The notes beneath the pieces are model-generated. The model had not been told where the DNA came from and ran no database searches. It saw nothing but the letters and a program-made list of their open reading frames with translations. 64,000 nt of DNA. Source: an uncultured Clostridia bacterium (GTDB lineage Bacteria > Bacillota > Clostridia > Christensenellales > Borkfalkiaceae). Location of the stretch: contig CALVMH010000006.1 in assembly GCA_944343275.1 (NCBI GenBank), positions 29,435 through 93,434 on the forward strand, written 5' to 3'. This document shows positions 4,846-36,183 of the stretch, in pieces (the first letter of the stretch is position 1; every line of letters starts with the position of its first letter). The position numbers and the translations under genes are program-made.

Positions 4846-5643
4846 TCAAAGCATCTCCTTGTAAATTTCGCTCTTGGAGACCCCCCTGTCGCGCGCGGTC
4901 TGTTTGAGCGCCTCTTTCTTGTCCATGCCCTGCGCCATGTATGCCTCCACATGCGCGCGCACGGGCAGTGCGTTGAGGGGATTTTCCGCCTGCGCCGCCC
5001 CCGCGACGACGAGCACGTATTCCCCGCGCTTTTCCCCCGCAAGCCCCTCCGAGAGCAGGAAGGGGCGCGCCTCCTCGTGCAGTTTTGTGATCTCCCTGAC
5101 GGCGCAGGCGCGGCGTTCGCCGAACACGGCATACAGGCTTGCGACGTCCCTGTCCACGTCCTGCGGGGCGCTGTGGAAGAGCAGCGTCTCCGTGCGCGCC
5201 CGGTACTGCGCGAGCAGCGCCTCCCGTTCCCCCTTTTTGTCGGGCAGAAAGCCGACGAAGGAAAACCGATCGGCGGGCAGGGCGGAGAGCACCAGCGCGC
5301 ACAGCGCGGCGTTCGCCCCCGGAAGCACGGTGTAGTCTTCGCCCGCCTCGCGCAGGATGCGGCACACCTCGCGCCCCGGATCGGAGACGACGGGCATGCC
5401 GGCGTCCGAGACGACGCACACCGCCTTCCCCTCCCGCGAGAGGGCGAGGATGCGCTCCGCCGCCTCCCGTTCGTTGAACTTATGGCAGGCAAAGAGGGGT
5501 TTTTTCATGCCGTAGGCGTTGAGCAGTTTCAGCGTATGGCGGGTGTCCTCGCAGAACACGGCGTCCGCCTCTTTGAGCGCGTCGAGCGCCCGCAGCGTGA
5601 TGTCTTTCAGGTTGCCGATGGGCGTTGCGACAAACGTTACCAT
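4846..5643 (-). CDS. rsmI: 16S rRNA 2'-O-ribose C1402 methyltransferase
   Basis: This 265-residue SAM-dependent enzyme methylates the ribose of C1402 in the decoding centre of 16S rRNA. The tetrapyrrole-methylase fold is shown by VATPIGNLKDIT at the start, EDTRHT near 32-37, VVSDAGMPVVSDPG near 78-91, and FVGFLP near 128. The start ATG overlaps the end of the upstream trmN6 gene by 7 bases, so the two are translationally coupled. The same pairing (yabB with yabC) is known in Bacillus. The C-terminal helical part with MDKKEALKQTARDRG is a typical RsmI tail. Confidence 0.95.
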   Translation of the reverse strand: MVTFVATPIGNLKDITLRALDALKEADAVFCEDTRHTLKLLNAYGMKKPLFACHKFNEREAAERILALSREGKAVCVVSDAGMPVVSDPGREVCRILREAGEDYTVLPGANAALCALVLSALPADRFSFVGFLPDKKGEREALLAQYRARTETLLFHSAPQDVDRDVASLYAVFGERRACAVREITKLHEEARPFLLSEGLAGEKRGEYVLVVAGAAQAENPLNALPVRAHVEAYMAQGMDKKEALKQTARDRGVSKSEIYKEML

Positions 5644-6314
5644 GCCTCCCCCTTTTCGTTGACGAGCGTCGGCGTCAGCTCGACGCCGGGTCTGCCCCCC
5701 TTGACCGCCGCGACGAGCACGGCATACGGTTTTGCGCCCGCCTTTCCCGCAACGGGCGTGATCTTTTTGACTTCAAACGCGCGCTCGTGCAGCGCCCGTA
5801 TGACCTCTGCCAGCCTGTCCGCCCGATGCACGAGGGCGAACCTGCCGCCGAATTTCAGGCAGCGCGCCGCCGCGGCGCAAAGTTCGGGGAGCGTTAAAAA
5901 CAGCTCCTTGCGGCACATCGCCTTCCGCGCGTCCGCCGCCGCAAACCCGCCCCGTTCATAGGGAGGATTGGCAAGGACGAGCGAAAATGCCTCCGTATAG
6001 CGCGCGGGGATGTCCTGCACGCGCACGTTTTCCACCGTGAACGCCCCCTCCAGCCCGTTGAGGGCGACGGTGCGTGCGCTCATGGCGGCAAGTTCGGGCT
6101 GCATTTCGAACAGGGTGACGTGCTCCACGCCGCGGTTCTCCGCATAAAAATGTAACCCGACGACGCCGCTGCCCGCACAAAAATCGGCGACGCGCTCCCC
6201 CTTTTTGGCTTTGAGAAAGCGCGCCAGAAGCACCGCGTCCGACGTAAAGCGGTAGAGCGCGGTGTCCTGCAAAATGCGGTAATTCCCGATGAGCAGCGTT
6301 TCTTCGACCTGCAT
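5637..6314 (-). CDS. trmN6: tRNA1(Val) (adenine37-N6)-methyltransferase family protein
   Basis: This 225-residue class I methyltransferase belongs to the TrmN6/YabB family that modifies A37 of tRNA. Motif I is FCAGSGVVGLHF at about 45-56, and the adenine-N6 signature NPPY is at 116-119. A GGAGGG site lies 6 bases before the start. It forms a coupled pair with rsmI downstream (7-base overlap). The GIY-YIG gene that sits between the two in Bacillus is missing here. Specificity for tRNA-Val is assumed from the family. Confidence 0.88.
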   Translation of the reverse strand: MQVEETLLIGNYRILQDTALYRFTSDAVLLARFLKAKKGERVADFCAGSGVVGLHFYAENRGVEHVTLFEMQPELAAMSARTVALNGLEGAFTVENVRVQDIPARYTEAFSLVLANPPYERGGFAAADARKAMCRKELFLTLPELCAAAARCLKFGGRFALVHRADRLAEVIRALHERAFEVKKITPVAGKAGAKPYAVLVAAVKGGRPGVELTPTLVNEKGEAW

Positions 6315-6342
6315 GCCATCCCTCCGTCCCCGAAGGGCGTTC

Positions 6343-6543
6343 TCACCAATCCTGTTTTTTCAGGCTCTTGTCCTTGACGTCGTCGTACTTTTCAAAGTAA
6401 GCGCGCTTCCACTCCGCGGGGGATGCCTGCTCCCGCCCGCCGCATTCCGCAAGGCGGGCTTCCAGCTCTTCGGGCGTGAAGTCGCCCTCGTCCGCCTCGC
6501 TGTCATAGCGGGAGAACAATTTCATGAGATCGTACTGCGACAT
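6343..6543 (-). CDS. Small hypothetical protein, 66 residues
   Basis: This short, charged, soluble protein is rich in Glu, Asp and Lys and has no membrane segment. A GGAGGGG site lies just before its ATG, and it sits 28 bases upstream of trmN6 on the same strand, so it is likely the first gene of the trmN6-rsmI unit. I do not recognise the family. The ribosome site and codon use make it a believable gene rather than a chance frame. Confidence 0.6.
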   Translation of the reverse strand: MSQYDLMKLFSRYDSEADEGDFTPEELEARLAECGGREQASPAEWKRAYFEKYDDVKDKSLKKQDW

Positions 6544-6561
6544 AGCCCCTCCGTGCGCAAG

Positions 6562-6585
6562 TTGTCCACATCTTTGTGTGGATAA
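6562..6585. other. Inverted pair of DnaA-box-like sequences
   Basis: TTGTCCACA (6562-6570) faces TGTGGATAA (6577-6585), the exact complement of TTATCCACA. They sit in the short gap between two small genes, about 34 kb from the probable origin. Confidence 0.5.
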
Positions 6586-6594
6586 GTGGAAAAA

Positions 6595-6765
6595 TCAGCA
6601 ATAGCGGTTGCCCGCGGCGTCGTAGCAAACGCCGAGCGCCGCCAGGCGCGCATCGAGTTCCGCCCGTTCCCAGCCGAGTTCTTCACACAGTTCATCGGGC
6701 GAAGCCGCCCCGTCGCGCAGTTTCATGTTGACGTAACTCAGCAGCATGGCGCCGTCCTGCATCAT
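6595..6765 (-). CDS. DUF4250-family small protein
   Basis: This 56-residue protein matches the DUF4250 pattern known from Clostridia: a start of the type AMLLSYVNMKLRD, then LDELCEEL-like text and a C-terminal DAAGNRY segment. The function of the family is unknown. A longer frame opens at 6789, but that ATG lies upstream of the -10 box at 6778-6783, so the ATG at 6765 (or the adjacent one at 6762) is the real start. Only about 5-6 bases would precede it in the mRNA and no ribosome site is visible, so it is nearly leaderless. Confidence 0.72.
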   Translation of the reverse strand: MMQDGAMLLSYVNMKLRDGAASPDELCEELGWERAELDARLAALGVCYDAAGNRYC

Positions 6766-6777
6766 TTCTATATCCGC

Positions 6778-6806
6778 ATTATACCACATCCCCCCGAAAA
6801 AGGCAA
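6778..6806 (-). promoter_or_regulatory. Promoter of the DUF4250 gene
   Basis: On the minus strand TTGCCT (6806-6801) and TATAAT (6783-6778) are 17 bp apart, with TGG making an extended -10. Confidence 0.7.
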
Positions 6807-6841
6807 CTGCCTTGCGCCTCCTGCCGCGCGCCGTGCAAAAC

Positions 6842-7213
6842 TCATGCCCGCACGCATTTTTTGAGGGCGGACAGGATGCGAAACAGCGCCAAAGCGATGA
6901 GAAAGACGCCGAAGCCGCGTTCCAGCGCGGCGCCGGGGAGGTGGGCGGCGAGCAGCGAAAACAGCGCCGAGGAGACGAGGGCGGAGAGCACGAGGGGCAG
7001 CAGCCCTTCCCCCTTCAGCAGCCCGCTTTTGGCATGCACGGGCAGGGCAAGCGCCGCCATCGGCAAAAAGGCGACGAGGTTGACGCCCTGCGCCGCCGCC
7101 TGATCCACGCCGAAGAGCGTCAGGAGCGGGATGAGTGCCGTGCCGCCGCCCATGCCCATGCCGCCCAGCACGCCGCCCGCGACCCCGCACAAAAAGAGCA
7201 CTAAAAACGCCAT
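6842..7213 (-). CDS. TauE/SafE permease, second half
   Basis: This 123-residue membrane protein has about four helices and one copy of the glycine-rich TauE/SafE repeat (GGVLGGMGMGGGTALIPLL near 13-31). Family members export sulfite, sulfoacetate or related organic anions and usually carry two such repeats in about 250 residues. Here the second repeat is a separate gene that overlaps the first half by 13 bases. A longer frame exists upstream, but its extra text is Arg-rich noise, so the ATG at 7213 was chosen. The two halves probably form a heterodimeric pore. Confidence 0.8.
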   Translation of the reverse strand: MAFLVLFLCGVAGGVLGGMGMGGGTALIPLLTLFGVDQAAAQGVNLVAFLPMAALALPVHAKSGLLKGEGLLPLVLSALVSSALFSLLAAHLPGAALERGFGVFLIALALFRILSALKKCVRA

Positions 7214-7569
7214 GCCGCCACCGCCTTGACGCCCGCGAGCAGCATGAGCGCGGAGAACGCGAGATCGAGCGCGCGGGGCGGGAGAAGGGGCAGCAGTTTT
7301 GCGCCGAGCAATCCGCCCGCCAACACGCCGATGGCAACGGGCAGCAGCACCTGCCACGGAACAAGCCCCCACAAAAGATAGACGACGGCGCTTGTAAAGG
7401 AGGCGGGCAGGATGCACGCGATGGCGGTGGCGTGCGCCGCTGCCGTCCCGCGCCCTTCGATGCGCTCCAAAAGGGGCACGGCGATCATGCCGCCGCCCCC
7501 GCCGAAGATGCCGTTTGCCGCGCCCACCGCGCCGCCGCCCGCAATGCGTGCCCAAATCTTTGTTTGCAT
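7201..7569 (-). CDS. TauE/SafE permease, first half
   Basis: This 122-residue membrane protein holds the first TauE/SafE repeat, with GAANGIFGGGGGMIAVPLL near 14-32 followed by about three more helices. It starts behind GAGGGG and its 3' end overlaps the start of the second half-gene, which suggests coupled synthesis in equal amounts. Split TauE/SafE pairs of about 120 residues are seen in other Clostridia, so this is probably not a recent frameshift. The substrate is unknown; no sulfonate genes are adjacent. Confidence 0.82.
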   Translation of the reverse strand: MQTKIWARIAGGGAVGAANGIFGGGGGMIAVPLLERIEGRGTAAAHATAIACILPASFTSAVVYLLWGLVPWQVLLPVAIGVLAGGLLGAKLLPLLPPRALDLAFSALMLLAGVKAVAAWRF

Positions 7570-33244: not shown

Positions 33245-33271
33245 AAAAAAAGCGGCTTTCGCCGCGTTTTT
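33245..33271. terminator. Weak hairpin at the end of the TIR operon
   Basis: GCGGC and GCCGC pair around TTTC, flanked by an A run and a T run, right at the stop codon of the 118-residue gene. Confidence 0.6.
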
Positions 33272-33627
33272 CAAAGAGTGATCCCGAACAAGGTCCCCGT
33301 CTGCGCGAGGTCGTGCCGCGCAAGGTCGGCGGCAAGTTTCCAACGGTCGTTCCGTTCGGAGGAGAACAGGCGGCGCAGTTTCCATTTGCGGACGAAGCCC
33401 GCATATCTGCGCAGGGACGGGAACTTCTTTTGCCCGTTCACGCAGACGAGCAGCGTGCGCTCGCATTCGCTCAGGACGCGGTATTCGAGATAGTTGCCCG
33501 CATCCTTGCGGAAACGGTATATCTGCGTACAGGTGGAATCGGTGCCCTTTGAATAGTCGCGCTCGAAGAGAAATCCCCGTTCCGTCAGAAAGGAAAATAA
33601 TTGTACGATCGATTCATCCTCGGTCAT
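33271..33627 (-). CDS. Unknown 118-residue partner of the TIR-methyltransferase
   Basis: This soluble alpha/beta-looking protein is rich in Arg, Phe and Tyr, with LFSFLTERGFLFERDY at the start, YLEYRVLSECERTLLVCVNG in the middle and a basic end (RKWKLRRLFSSERND). I know no family for it. AGGAGG precedes its ATG, and only 18 bases separate it from the end of the TIR-methyltransferase gene, so the two are one operon. It could be a cofactor, an inhibitor or an immunity protein of the TIR enzyme; nothing in the sequence decides. Confidence 0.75.
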   Translation of the reverse strand: MTEDESIVQLFSFLTERGFLFERDYSKGTDSTCTQIYRFRKDAGNYLEYRVLSECERTLLVCVNGQKKFPSLRRYAGFVRKWKLRRLFSSERNDRWKLAADLARHDLAQTGTLFGITL

Positions 33628-33645
33628 GGCTGCCTCCTTTTACGT

Positions 33646-34953
33646 TTACTTCTTTGCCGTGTACAGCATGAATCCGAGCGAGAAGAAGAAGTCCTCGTTC
33701 ATGAACTCGTCCTCCATCTCCTCATAGTGTTTGTGCATCCATTCGGCACTCTCGCGGTAGAGCGCGTTGTCGGGCGACTGCGCGGCAAGGATGGCGAAGT
33801 CCCCGCGGATAAAGGAAAAGTAGATGTGGAACATCGCCTCGCGCTCGTCAAAATCCATATCGAGCGTGTTGAGCCCGGAGCGCACTAGGCGGATGTCGCA
33901 GTAGCCCGACTTGTGCAGAAGGTACGGAATCTGCCTTCCGCTCGCGCGGAAACCGCCGAGCGGATTTTTGGCGCACAGACCGATGGCGTATTCGAAATAC
34001 CCCTTCTGGTCGGGATATGCCAGATTGAGCCCGTCGTCGATATCCTTGATGACGATGGTGGCGCCGCTCCGGACAAATTTGCGGATGCGCTTGAGCAGGC
34101 GGACAGGGTTCTTGAGGTGCAGAATGAGCATGGAGATATTTACCACGTTGAAGCCGTCGATACCGTATTTTTCGCACGCGTCCCCGATAACTTTTTCCAC
34201 GTCTTCCCCTTCCAGATCGCACTGTGCAAAGAGGGTGCGTTCGTTCCCGTACGCCACATTGGCGCGCTCCACCGCCTCGCTGTTGAACTCGATACCCAGA
34301 AAGAAGGCGAGGTTTTTGCGGCTGCCGAAACGGCTCATCGCAAAGCTGCCGTTCGCCGAACCAAGATCGAGCACATACATATTCTCGCGCTCCGCCGCGA
34401 CGGCGTCGTACAGTTCGCCGTCAAACTTTTCCAGCAGGCGCTGCTGAATGAGCAAACGGGCGCGTTCCTTCTCGTCGCTCTCCTCATAATAGGCGTTGGA
34501 ATGACGTTCCTGCTGCGCGGCGCCGCGTTCGCGCGCGGGCCTTAAGATGGTGAGGATCTTGGTCTTGAGCTCGAGAATGGCGTTTTCGATGCCCTGCGTG
34601 CTCGCGTCGATCCAGTGCAGACGCTTGATATAATATTCCATCGCCTTGGACAGGTCCTCGCCGTCCAGTTTGAAGGGAAGGATGGTGAGCTCGCCCTCCT
34701 TTTCGATGATACGCTTGTAGGCGATCTCCACTTCATTGAGCACGTGCACGGACTTGGATGCCGCGTTGTTGAGGACAACCACGAAGATGCTCGCCTCGTC
34801 GATGGCGTTCACGATGCTTGTCGCATAGTCGCCGCTGACGTCGCGCGGGGCATACCAGCAGCGGATCCCCTCCGCCTCGAGCACGGAACAGATATGATCC
34901 ACGACCGACTTCATGTTGTGCTCGTAACTTAAAAAGACATCAACCTTGTTCAT
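33646..34953 (-). CDS. TIR domain fused to a SAM-dependent methyltransferase
   Basis: Residues 4-136 are a TIR domain: DVFLSYEHN at the start, GIRCWYAPRD, SIFVVVLNNAASKS, and NEVEIAYKR, where E74 aligns with the catalytic glutamate of NAD-cleaving TIR enzymes. A charged linker leads to a class I methyltransferase from about 170, with motif I VLDLGSANG at 194-202, an acidic strand end (LGIEFN) and VNISMLILHLKNP. The start at 34953 was chosen because the ATG at 34980 lies only two bases after the -10 box. A weak CAGGCGG is 12 bases upstream. TIR enzymes often act in phage defence or as NAD-consuming effectors; a fused methyltransferase is unusual. Confidence 0.85.
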   Translation of the reverse strand: MNKVDVFLSYEHNMKSVVDHICSVLEAEGIRCWYAPRDVSGDYATSIVNAIDEASIFVVVLNNAASKSVHVLNEVEIAYKRIIEKEGELTILPFKLDGEDLSKAMEYYIKRLHWIDASTQGIENAILELKTKILTILRPARERGAAQQERHSNAYYEESDEKERARLLIQQRLLEKFDGELYDAVAAERENMYVLDLGSANGSFAMSRFGSRKNLAFFLGIEFNSEAVERANVAYGNERTLFAQCDLEGEDVEKVIGDACEKYGIDGFNVVNISMLILHLKNPVRLLKRIRKFVRSGATIVIKDIDDGLNLAYPDQKGYFEYAIGLCAKNPLGGFRASGRQIPYLLHKSGYCDIRLVRSGLNTLDMDFDEREAMFHIYFSFIRGDFAILAAQSPDNALYRESAEWMHKHYEEMEDEFMNEDFFFSLGFMLYTAKK

Positions 34954-34982
34954 TGTTTTTTTGTCCGCCTGTTTTTTCATTT

Positions 34983-35189: not shown

Positions 35190-35220
35190 AAAAAAACGAC
35201 GGTTTGCTTCATGCAAACCG
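35190..35220 (-). terminator. Terminator downstream of the DUF4234 gene
   Basis: CGGTTTGC and GCAAACCG pair around ATGAA on the minus strand, followed by seven Ts. It follows the duplicated pckG tail. Confidence 0.75.
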
Positions 35221-35234
35221 CCGCACAATCTTTA

Positions 35235-35260
35235 TTTTACGCTTCGCAGTTCTTTTTGAG
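35235..35260 (-). repeat. Duplicated 3' end of pckG (copy)
   Basis: These 26 bases are identical to 36158-36183, which encode the last residues of PckG (LKKNCEA and stop). Similarity continues past the stop, where a later 18-base block matches at 16 positions with the same spacing. It lies 108 bases past the end of the DUF4234 gene. Confidence 0.7.
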
Positions 35261-35368: not shown

Positions 35369-35866
35369 TCAGCCGTTGACGTTGAAATCCGCGGACAAAA
35401 GATTCATTGCCTTCAACAGCTTGTGAATGTACACGAACGGTCCGACAAGAATGAGCGTGCCGAGAACATTCCATCCCCAATAACTGCCCGCACCAAAGGA
35501 ATAGCCGATATTGCGGCGGGCAAGTTCTCTGCCGATCCTTGCGCTGACCCTGTGATACCAGACGAGCATTCCGATCCCCAGCGTGAGCCAGCTGAAAACA
35601 AAGAGCAGTAGGCAGAAGTGCATCGTTTTCTTTCCGTCGTACCGGGAAGCGATGGTGTTGATGTCCGTGCTCACCGCCGACAAAACAACCAAAGCGTAGA
35701 TGCCGATGGTGATGATGGATAGCAAAATAAACTTGACGAGCCCACGGTTGGTTTTGAGCTGTACGACGGGCGCGGCGGGATGTGCGGACTGTACGGCGCT
35801 ACCGCAGTTCGGGCAGACATCGGCATTATCGTCGATCTCATGCCCACATTTTGTGCAATACTTCAT
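35369..35866 (-). CDS. Zinc-ribbon DUF4234 membrane protein
   Basis: This 165-residue protein begins with a zinc ribbon (MKYCTKCGHEIDDNADVCPNCGS), then a short linker, then a DUF4234 membrane domain with about four helices: LVKFILLSIITIGIYALVVLSAV, TMHFCLLLFVFSWLTLGIGMLVWYH, a conserved-looking RRNIGYSFGAGSYWGW, and LGTLILVGPFVYIHKLL. The function of the family is unknown. It lies between the two copies of the pckG tail and may have arrived or duplicated with them. Confidence 0.85.
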   Translation of the reverse strand: MKYCTKCGHEIDDNADVCPNCGSAVQSAHPAAPVVQLKTNRGLVKFILLSIITIGIYALVVLSAVSTDINTIASRYDGKKTMHFCLLLFVFSWLTLGIGMLVWYHRVSARIGRELARRNIGYSFGAGSYWGWNVLGTLILVGPFVYIHKLLKAMNLLSADFNVNG

Positions 35867-36082: not shown

Positions 36083-36132
36083 AAATATATAAAAATCGGC
36101 GGCTTGTACAAGCCGCCGATTTTTATATATTT
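36083..36132 (-). terminator. Perfect 50-bp palindrome: terminator of pckG
   Basis: Arms of 25 bp are perfectly complementary, centred on GTAC at 36106-36109. The GC core (TCGGCGGCTTG) is flanked by A/T runs, so it ends in a T-rich tail on both strands. It lies 27 bases after the pckG stop. Confidence 0.85.
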
Positions 36133-36157
36133 CATGTAAACTGCCGCATCCTGTCCG

Positions 36158-36183
36158 TTTTACGCTTCGCAGTTCTTTTTGAG
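36158..36183 (-). repeat. 3' end of pckG (original of the duplicated tail)
   Basis: Matches 35235-35260 at all 26 bases; it includes the pckG stop codon. Confidence 0.7.

What the first reader, a model, noticed from the sequence alone, without database searches (positions are those of the whole stretch)
33271..34953. TIR-methyltransferase fusion in an operon with an unknown 118-residue protein
The sequence shows a TIR domain with an apparently intact catalytic-type glutamate (E74) joined to a class I SAM methyltransferase, followed after 18 bases by a small basic protein of no known family. Bacterial TIR enzymes cleave NAD or make cyclic ADP-ribose signals in phage defence (Thoeris, CBASS-like and Pycsar-like effectors). 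A methyltransferase in the same chain could methylate a nucleotide signal, silence the TIR, or sense SAM. Neither partner matches a defence system I know.
Basis: partly seen in the sequence, partly recalled or inferred. Interest (0 to 1): 0.82.

Follow-up and report, generated by a model that had tools for sequence, protein, structure and literature searches.

The report
TIR–methyltransferase proteins with swappable TIRs
A gut-bacterial order carries a family of proteins that join an immune-type NAD-cutting (TIR) domain to a methyltransferase-shaped domain; the small neighbouring protein looks like an unrelated chromosomal gene, and the comparison suggests that the methyltransferase part may act as a sensor for the TIR.

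Summary
The fusion is real: a TIR_2 domain and a class I SAM methyltransferase in one frame. The 118-residue "partner" is not supported: in relatives it sits by PEPCK/DeoR without the fusion (0 of 19 places), and co-occurrence is at chance (5 genomes, 6.1 expected). I compared 65 proteins with this methyltransferase module, all from one bacterial order. The TIR glutamate is kept in 61 of 61 assessable members, while 9 of 65 lost SAM-binding residues, in two lineages. One TIR class sits on separate methyltransferase lineages (AU p 4e-46). GNAT genes abut 13 of 65. Three loci adjoin ryanodine-receptor-domain (RyR) genes; phage RyR proteins bind or cut cyclic ADP-ribose immune signals (PMC13232231). 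Best reading: a TIR enzyme whose methyltransferase fold is an input domain, working like a one-chain Thoeris-type sensor. No activity has been shown.

The parts
33646..34953 (-). TIR-methyltransferase CDS (435 aa; an in-frame Met at 34980 would give 444 aa)
   Evidence: most homologues start near the 34953 Met
34594..34938 (-). TIR_2 domain (residues 15-129 of the 444-aa numbering)
   Evidence: PF13676 E 1.6e-17; structure model
34732..34734 (-). codon of the catalytic-type Glu (E74; E83 from the upstream Met)
   Evidence: Invariant in 26/26 and 61/61. That this Glu is the catalytic one is recalled from SARM1/ThsB work
33646..34497 (-). class I SAM methyltransferase module with C-terminal helices (residues 162-444)
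   Evidence: PF13847 E 4.6e-10; Foldseek best 3mgg E 5.9e-15; family profile vs 3mgg E 1.2e-21
33271..33627 (-). 118-aa conserved chromosomal gene; physically downstream, probably not part of the system
   Evidence: Synteny with PEPCK/DeoR without the fusion; co-occurrence at chance
35369..35866 (-). zinc-ribbon + DUF4234 protein, the upstream neighbour; not taken as part of the system
   Evidence: PF14018 E 5.1e-21
35196..35224 (-). terminator-like stem-loop between DUF4234 and the TIR-methyltransferase gene
   Evidence: 12 pairs, 7 G-C, T-run; a consensus match only: 6 such sites found in the region, 4.3 expected in shuffles

Best explanation
The gene encodes a TIR enzyme whose methyltransferase-fold domain is its input (sensor) part. 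Shown: one chain; TIR glutamate kept in every assessable member; SAM-binding residues lost in some lineages; TIR classes exchanged onto the same module; repeated linkage to GNAT genes and, in three loci, to RyR-domain genes. Inferred: when the methyltransferase-fold domain binds or loses its ligand (a phage protein or metabolite, or SAM plus acceptor), the TIR domains cleave or cyclise NAD. The product or the NAD loss then stops growth during phage infection. In some relatives the signal would be read by RyR proteins; in the window's genome the one RyR match lies on another contig.
For: TIR Glu in 61 of 61 assessable members, against loss of the motif I Gly and/or the acidic residue of strand 2 in 9 of 65, in two lineages (one clade of 8, plus L114). 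Outside the SAM loop, E172 and D315 are kept in 65 of 65, R345 and R349 in 64 of 65, so the rest of the domain stays under constraint. TIR class T2 is one group on the TIR tree (SH-aLRT 94, quick tree with long-branch warnings) but is split on the methyltransferase tree (AU p 4.2e-46). Other TIRs of the same family of genomes carry partner domains that could be inputs: LRR, TPR with a sub-threshold NB-ARC, a glucosamine-6-phosphate-deaminase-like domain and a nitroreductase. Of the 21 loci with large RyR frames, 9 have a TIR gene beside them and 3 of these are TIR-methyltransferases. In L152 a nitroreductase-TIR fusion takes the place, next to a 62.5%-identical membrane-type protein, that the TIR-methyltransferase takes in L057.
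Against: Both SAM residues are intact in 56 of 65, including the window's protein, so most may be active enzymes. Linkage to GNAT (13 of 65 genes) and RimK-type ATP-grasp genes (4 loci, one without TIR) suggests chemistry rather than sensing. The window's gene has none of these partners beside it. Only 3 loci adjoin RyR genes, and 6 of the 13 genomes with small RyR frames also have the fusion, so the genome-level association may reflect defence-rich genomes in general. Pfam put a partner domain over its cut-off in only 1 of the 10 other TIR proteins scanned; most partner readings are by eye. No background-controlled defence-island test was made. Almost nothing was found in phages, plasmids or viral contigs.
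Confidence: 0.45

Rival explanations
1. The methyltransferase is catalytic and, with the GNAT or ATP-grasp partner, chemically decorates the TIR's ADP-ribose-type product, giving a private signal.
For: Both SAM residues intact in 56 of 65; GNAT next to 13 of 65 genes against about 0.8 expected; RimK-type ATP-grasp genes overlapping in 4 loci.
Against: 9 of 65 domains lost SAM residues while the TIR Glu stayed, and GNATs also lie beside three of those nine (L056, L116, L130). The window's gene has no such partner.
Confidence: 0.2
2. Toxin with enzymatic antidote: the TIR is the toxin, and the methyltransferase, GNAT or ATP-grasp modifies and restrains it.
For: Tightly coupled, exchangeable modifying-enzyme genes: GNAT gaps of 3-13 bp or overlaps, RimK overlaps.
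Against: 52 of 65 genes have no abutting GNAT, the window's included; no modification site is known. Loss of SAM residues in 9 of 65 would remove restraint by methylation.
Confidence: 0.12
3. SAM-loss alarm: the domain holds SAM or SAH and the TIR fires when SAM falls, as during infection by phages that destroy SAM (recalled).
For: Both SAM residues intact in 56 of 65; one relative has LuxS, a gene of the SAM cycle, 17 bp downstream (L061).
Against: Cannot hold for the 9 members without SAM residues; the LuxS case is one of 63 loci and may be chance.
Confidence: 0.1
4. Functional two-gene unit with the 118-aa protein.
For: 18-bp gap, same strand, no terminator-like site between, so the two may well be co-transcribed here.
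Against: None of 19 other places with the 118-aa gene has the fusion beside it; the gene is syntenic with PEPCK/DeoR; overlap in genomes 5 against 6.1 expected.
Confidence: 0.03

Closest known systems
Thoeris ThsB (TIR signal generator)
   Same: TIR domain with catalytic-type Glu; predicted NAD-consuming signal maker; weak PADLOC ThsB matches (E 2.6e-4 and 3.5e-4).
   Different: Carries a methyltransferase domain; no SIR2 or SLOG domain came up in the seven neighbours scanned; the best PADLOC match is another family (SAVED_TIR, 5.1e-7).
Bacterial TIR effectors with fused sensor domains (TIR-SAVED, TIR-pAgo, TIR-STAND, TIR-LRR; recalled)
   Same: N-terminal TIR plus a C-terminal domain that would set it off.
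   Different: The second domain is a class I methyltransferase fold. I know of no described system with it (recalled); one search found no paper with the phrases, and the titles and abstract openings listed named none.
RyDEP and other RyR-domain proteins (PMC13232231; parts 1-2 of 6 read)
   Same: The HD-RyR proteins of this order share the H, W, H, D residues that contact the ligand in RyDEP; by motif and spacing they match H506, W509, H536, D553, invariant in 12 of 12.
   Different: Here they are large host proteins (HD-like region, or apparent membrane segments), in 9 of 21 loci beside TIR genes, not small phage evasion proteins; function untested.
Methanosarcina mazei methyltransferase 3mgg
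   Same: Nearest solved structure to the methyltransferase module.
   Different: The matched chain covers only the methyltransferase part; 18-19% identity in the Foldseek alignment; function unknown to me.

Membership tests
TIR NADase/cyclase superfamily | TIR domain by profile | tested here: met
   TIR_2 64.5 bits, cut-off 28
TIR NADase/cyclase superfamily | catalytic Glu at the conserved TIR position (position recalled) | tested here: met
   E83/E74 in 61 of 61
TIR NADase/cyclase superfamily | NAD cleavage or cyclisation | not testable with these tools
   needs an assay
Class I SAM methyltransferase | methyltransferase fold | tested here: met
   Methyltransf_31 over cut-off; Foldseek 3mgg
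Class I SAM methyltransferase | motif I Gly and acidic residue of strand 2 | tested here: met
   Met in the window's protein and in 56 of 65; not met in 9 of 65
Class I SAM methyltransferase | methyl transfer | not testable with these tools
   needs an assay
Thoeris | ThsB-type TIR by curated profile | tested here: inconclusive
   PADLOC ThsB E 2.6e-4, not the best match
Thoeris | adjacent ThsA-type effector | tested here: not met
   Pfam on seven neighbours between 29563 and 35866 and on the 118-aa gene gave no SIR2 or SLOG domain; PEPCK beyond them was named by eye
TIR + RyR neighbourhoods of this order | RyR-domain gene beside the TIR gene | tested here: not met
   The one RyR match of this genome is on contig C7, the window on C6 (L137). 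Met in relatives L056, L057, L124
Two-gene system with the 118-aa protein | conserved linkage | tested here: not met
   0 of 19 other places

The most novel reading that the evidence does not exclude
An order-wide bacterial immune repertoire in which interchangeable TIR domains are plugged onto metabolic-enzyme folds used as baits or sensors (methyltransferase, sugar-phosphate deaminase, nitroreductase), and in which some of the cyclic ADP-ribose-type signals open or switch RyR-domain membrane proteins. It would be a bacterial analogue both of plant receptors with integrated decoys and of animal cADPR-RyR signalling.
Probability: 0.15. Interest if true: 0.92.

Novelty: new variant of a known kind. 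Interest (0 to 1): 0.6.

Why it matters
If the methyltransferase fold is an input domain, what triggers a bacterial TIR becomes testable in a single compact protein. The natural members without SAM residues give ready-made controls. The host RyR-domain neighbours with conserved ligand residues would allow a direct test of whether bacteria use RyR domains as receivers of TIR signals, a question close to the one that the phage RyDEP paper raises for animal RyR channels.

Tried and rejected
118-aa gene as partner: rejected as a conserved unit. Its own model, folded from one sequence, is of middling confidence (mean pLDDT 74.1, the other four models 44-57) and I did not search with it. Housekeeping methyltransferase with decorative TIR: rejected, because the TIR Glu is the better kept feature. 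Thoeris membership: not claimed. Mobile-element origin: one weak TIR match among 50,697 phage records, one weak match of the methyltransferase part among 72,556 plasmid records, one TIR match in viral contigs. The viral-contig scan used only two TIR peptides, so it is a weak negative. SLOG identity of the C-terminus of the HD-RyR proteins: only weak DprA matches (E 0.028 and 0.2, below cut-off), so not claimed. GNAT-like, macro-like and V4R-like readings of some TIR partners were by eye; Pfam did not confirm them. A first GNAT count with profiles made from the neighbours themselves (16 of 916 genes, 12 of the 16 within two genes of a fusion) was circular, so I used PF00583 density instead. Module places found but not among the 65: G190:C20, G283:C72, G209:C11, G075:C11 (in pieces), G536:C40, and a 41-residue piece at G140:C25; also the weak G732 match.

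Full report
What is there. The minus strand carries one open frame, 33646-34980, with a better start at 34953. It holds a TIR_2 domain and a class I methyltransferase module, both over Pfam cut-offs, and models as two confident parts joined by a loose stretch (mean pLDDT 91.4, below 50 at 1-10 and 149-156). Foldseek and profile search both put the methyltransferase nearest to 3mgg. The 118-aa frame follows after 18 bases.

The neighbour is probably not a partner. In a sample of 301 genomes of the family, the 118-aa gene was found in 61 and the fusion's methyltransferase part in 30 (my reading). They meet in 5 genomes against 6.1 expected. Of the 61 places, the 19 best other than the window's own were compared by tblastn (25 stretches, six of them larger windows on the same places). 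None holds the fusion. Of the 11 in the same genus, 9 show PEPCK and/or DeoR within the 3.3-kb locus, and a tenth shows PEPCK in a larger window. In L039 and L040 only 192 and 236 bases separate the 118-aa gene from PEPCK. In the window 2532 bases do, and they hold the fusion and DUF4234. The fusion therefore looks like an addition in an old chromosomal neighbourhood. PEPCK was named by eye from its sequence.

The family. With the methyltransferase module as a profile (E at most 1e-15), 26 of 297 sampled genomes of the order matched (15 of 125 genera). In a phylum sample 2 of 398 matched: the window's own genome and one partial match at 8.4e-16. Two relatives lie in records named uncultured Christensenella sp. 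and uncultured Christensenellaceae bacterium, whose contig lengths equal those of G464:C1 and G377:C3. I analysed 65 distinct proteins from 63 loci. Sixty-one have an N-terminal part long enough to assess. Two lack a TIR (L088, L098; none found in their loci), one is cut by a contig end (L024), and one is split into two frames (L143).

What selection keeps. The TIR glutamate is E in 61 of 61. In the methyltransferase, nine of 65 have lost the motif I glycine and/or the acidic residue of strand 2 (L058, L059, L114, L116, L118, L119, L019, L130, L056:8186-9499). They form one clade of eight plus L114. E172 and D315 are kept in 65 of 65, R345 and R349 in 64 of 65. TIRs fall into five BLAST classes of 28, 11, 9, 7 and 6. 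On the TIR tree class T2 is one group (SH-aLRT 94; quick tree with long-branch warnings). On the methyltransferase tree it needs three changes, and one clade is rejected at p 4.2e-46. So the same module has been joined to different TIRs.

Partners. A GNAT gene abuts 13 of 65 genes (12 of 63 loci): L015, L062, L063, L064, L106, L112, L056 (both copies), L109, L115, L116, L018, L130. Pfam named GNAT domains in two of these neighbours and in four (one of the four, in L116, is the second gene away); PF00583 matched at the remaining places. PF00583 gave 114 matches in 12 genomes, 11 of which hold such a pair and were chosen for it. At that density, and with about 1600 genes per genome (my assumption), 0.8 of 65 would be expected. 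RimK-type ATP-grasp genes overlap the gene in four loci (L124, L139, L142 and the TIR-less L088; Pfam on L139 only, the rest by BLAST).

RyR. RyR domains were found in 34 of 301 genomes. I counted the 21 with large frames; five of these are below Pfam's cut-off (G013, G039, G121, G133, G170). Twelve of the 21 also have the fusion (2.1 expected, Fisher 1.6e-8). Of the 13 genomes with small RyR frames, which I left out of that count, 6 also have it (Fisher 6e-4). Neither test is corrected for kinship, and the second shows that the association is not confined to the large proteins. Of the 21 loci, nine have a TIR gene beside them: L150, L152, L155, L160, L161, L162 and, as TIR-methyltransferases, L056, L057, L124 (the TIR of L155 is below Pfam's cut-off). 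Gaps to the fusion are 13 bp in L056 and 47 bp in L124. In L057 the fusion is convergent, at 168 bp, with a gene whose RyR match is just below cut-off, and overlaps another apparent membrane-protein gene. The HD-RyR alignment A4 matches human RyR repeat domains (6uhi, E 5.3e-14). Its H506, W509, H536 and D553 are invariant in 12 of 12 and match by motif and spacing the ligand residues H75, W78, H100, D117 reported for phage RyDEP in PMC13232231 (parts 1-2 of 6 read). This residue mapping is mine and not structure-based.

Mechanism. The TIR glutamate was never seen to degrade, the SAM site sometimes does, and other residues of the domain stay fixed. I therefore read the methyltransferase fold as the input side and the TIR as the output side. 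The exchange of TIR classes fits this, and so do some other TIR fusions of these genomes (deaminase-like in the window's own genome; nitroreductase; LRR; TPR). The trigger, the activation step, the product and protection against phage are all inferred. That most members keep SAM residues, and that GNAT and ATP-grasp genes recur, keeps signal chemistry as the main rival.

Literature. No paper in the held open-access library has the phrases searched for a TIR-methyltransferase. Listings showed none by title or abstract opening. For RyR with TIR there were two papers; I read parts 1-2 of 6 of one (PMC13232231), which its listing marks as a preprint. PMC9503650 was seen as passages only. A 2015 survey by Burroughs and colleagues that I recall as relevant is not held, and subscription papers were not searchable, so the novelty claim is limited.

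Noticed in passing
window 35208-35260 and 36131-36183: A 53-nt direct repeat (83% identical) copies the last codons of PEPCK and its downstream region on the far side of DUF4234, as if that segment had been inserted at the PEPCK 3' end.
   Followed up: partly
L183:3271-4554 (window's own genome, contig C28): Another TIR protein of this genome: TIR fused to a glucosamine-6-phosphate-deaminase-like domain (phmmer 2ri0, E 9.8e-8); L062:4300-5598, L152:10972-12255, L185 and L189 look alike by eye.
   Followed up: partly
L137:7907-10177 and 5228-7396 (window's own genome, contig C7): RyR protein of 756 aa with an HD-like region (HD below cut-off), and a divergent 722-aa gene that looks like membrane segments plus nucleotide-binding folds by eye. 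A candidate receiver of TIR signals in trans.
   Followed up: partly
L063:8467-18517: Five same-strand genes with gaps of 8-68 bp: TIR-methyltransferase, GNAT, TIR with C-terminal HD_3, apparent membrane protein, 818-aa protein.
   Followed up: no
L152:13464-14588: Nitroreductase-TIR fusion (PF00881 E 2.5e-23, TIR_2 E 1.2e-10), overlapping a gene whose protein is 62.5% identical to the one beside the TIR-methyltransferase in L057.
   Followed up: no
L018:21-1376: The gene 13 bp upstream of a TIR-methyltransferase fuses a GNAT to a Trp/Tyr-tRNA-synthetase-like domain (PF00579 E 4.2e-33).
   Followed up: no
L061:5129-5596: LuxS (PF02664 E 1.8e-55), a SAM-cycle gene, 17 bp downstream of a TIR-methyltransferase.
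   Followed up: no
L072:4752-8929: Two genes with matches to PADLOC Orf5 models (the first also to HEC-06 and SspE; the second weak, E 5e-4) next to a TIR-methyltransferase.
   Followed up: no
L143:8758-10049: A TIR-methyltransferase relative split into two overlapping frames; described only.
   Followed up: no
window 33271-33627: The 118-aa gene belongs to a conserved family without a name in Pfam, NCBIfam or PADLOC; it also lies near PEPCK in another genus (L045-L047).
   Followed up: partly
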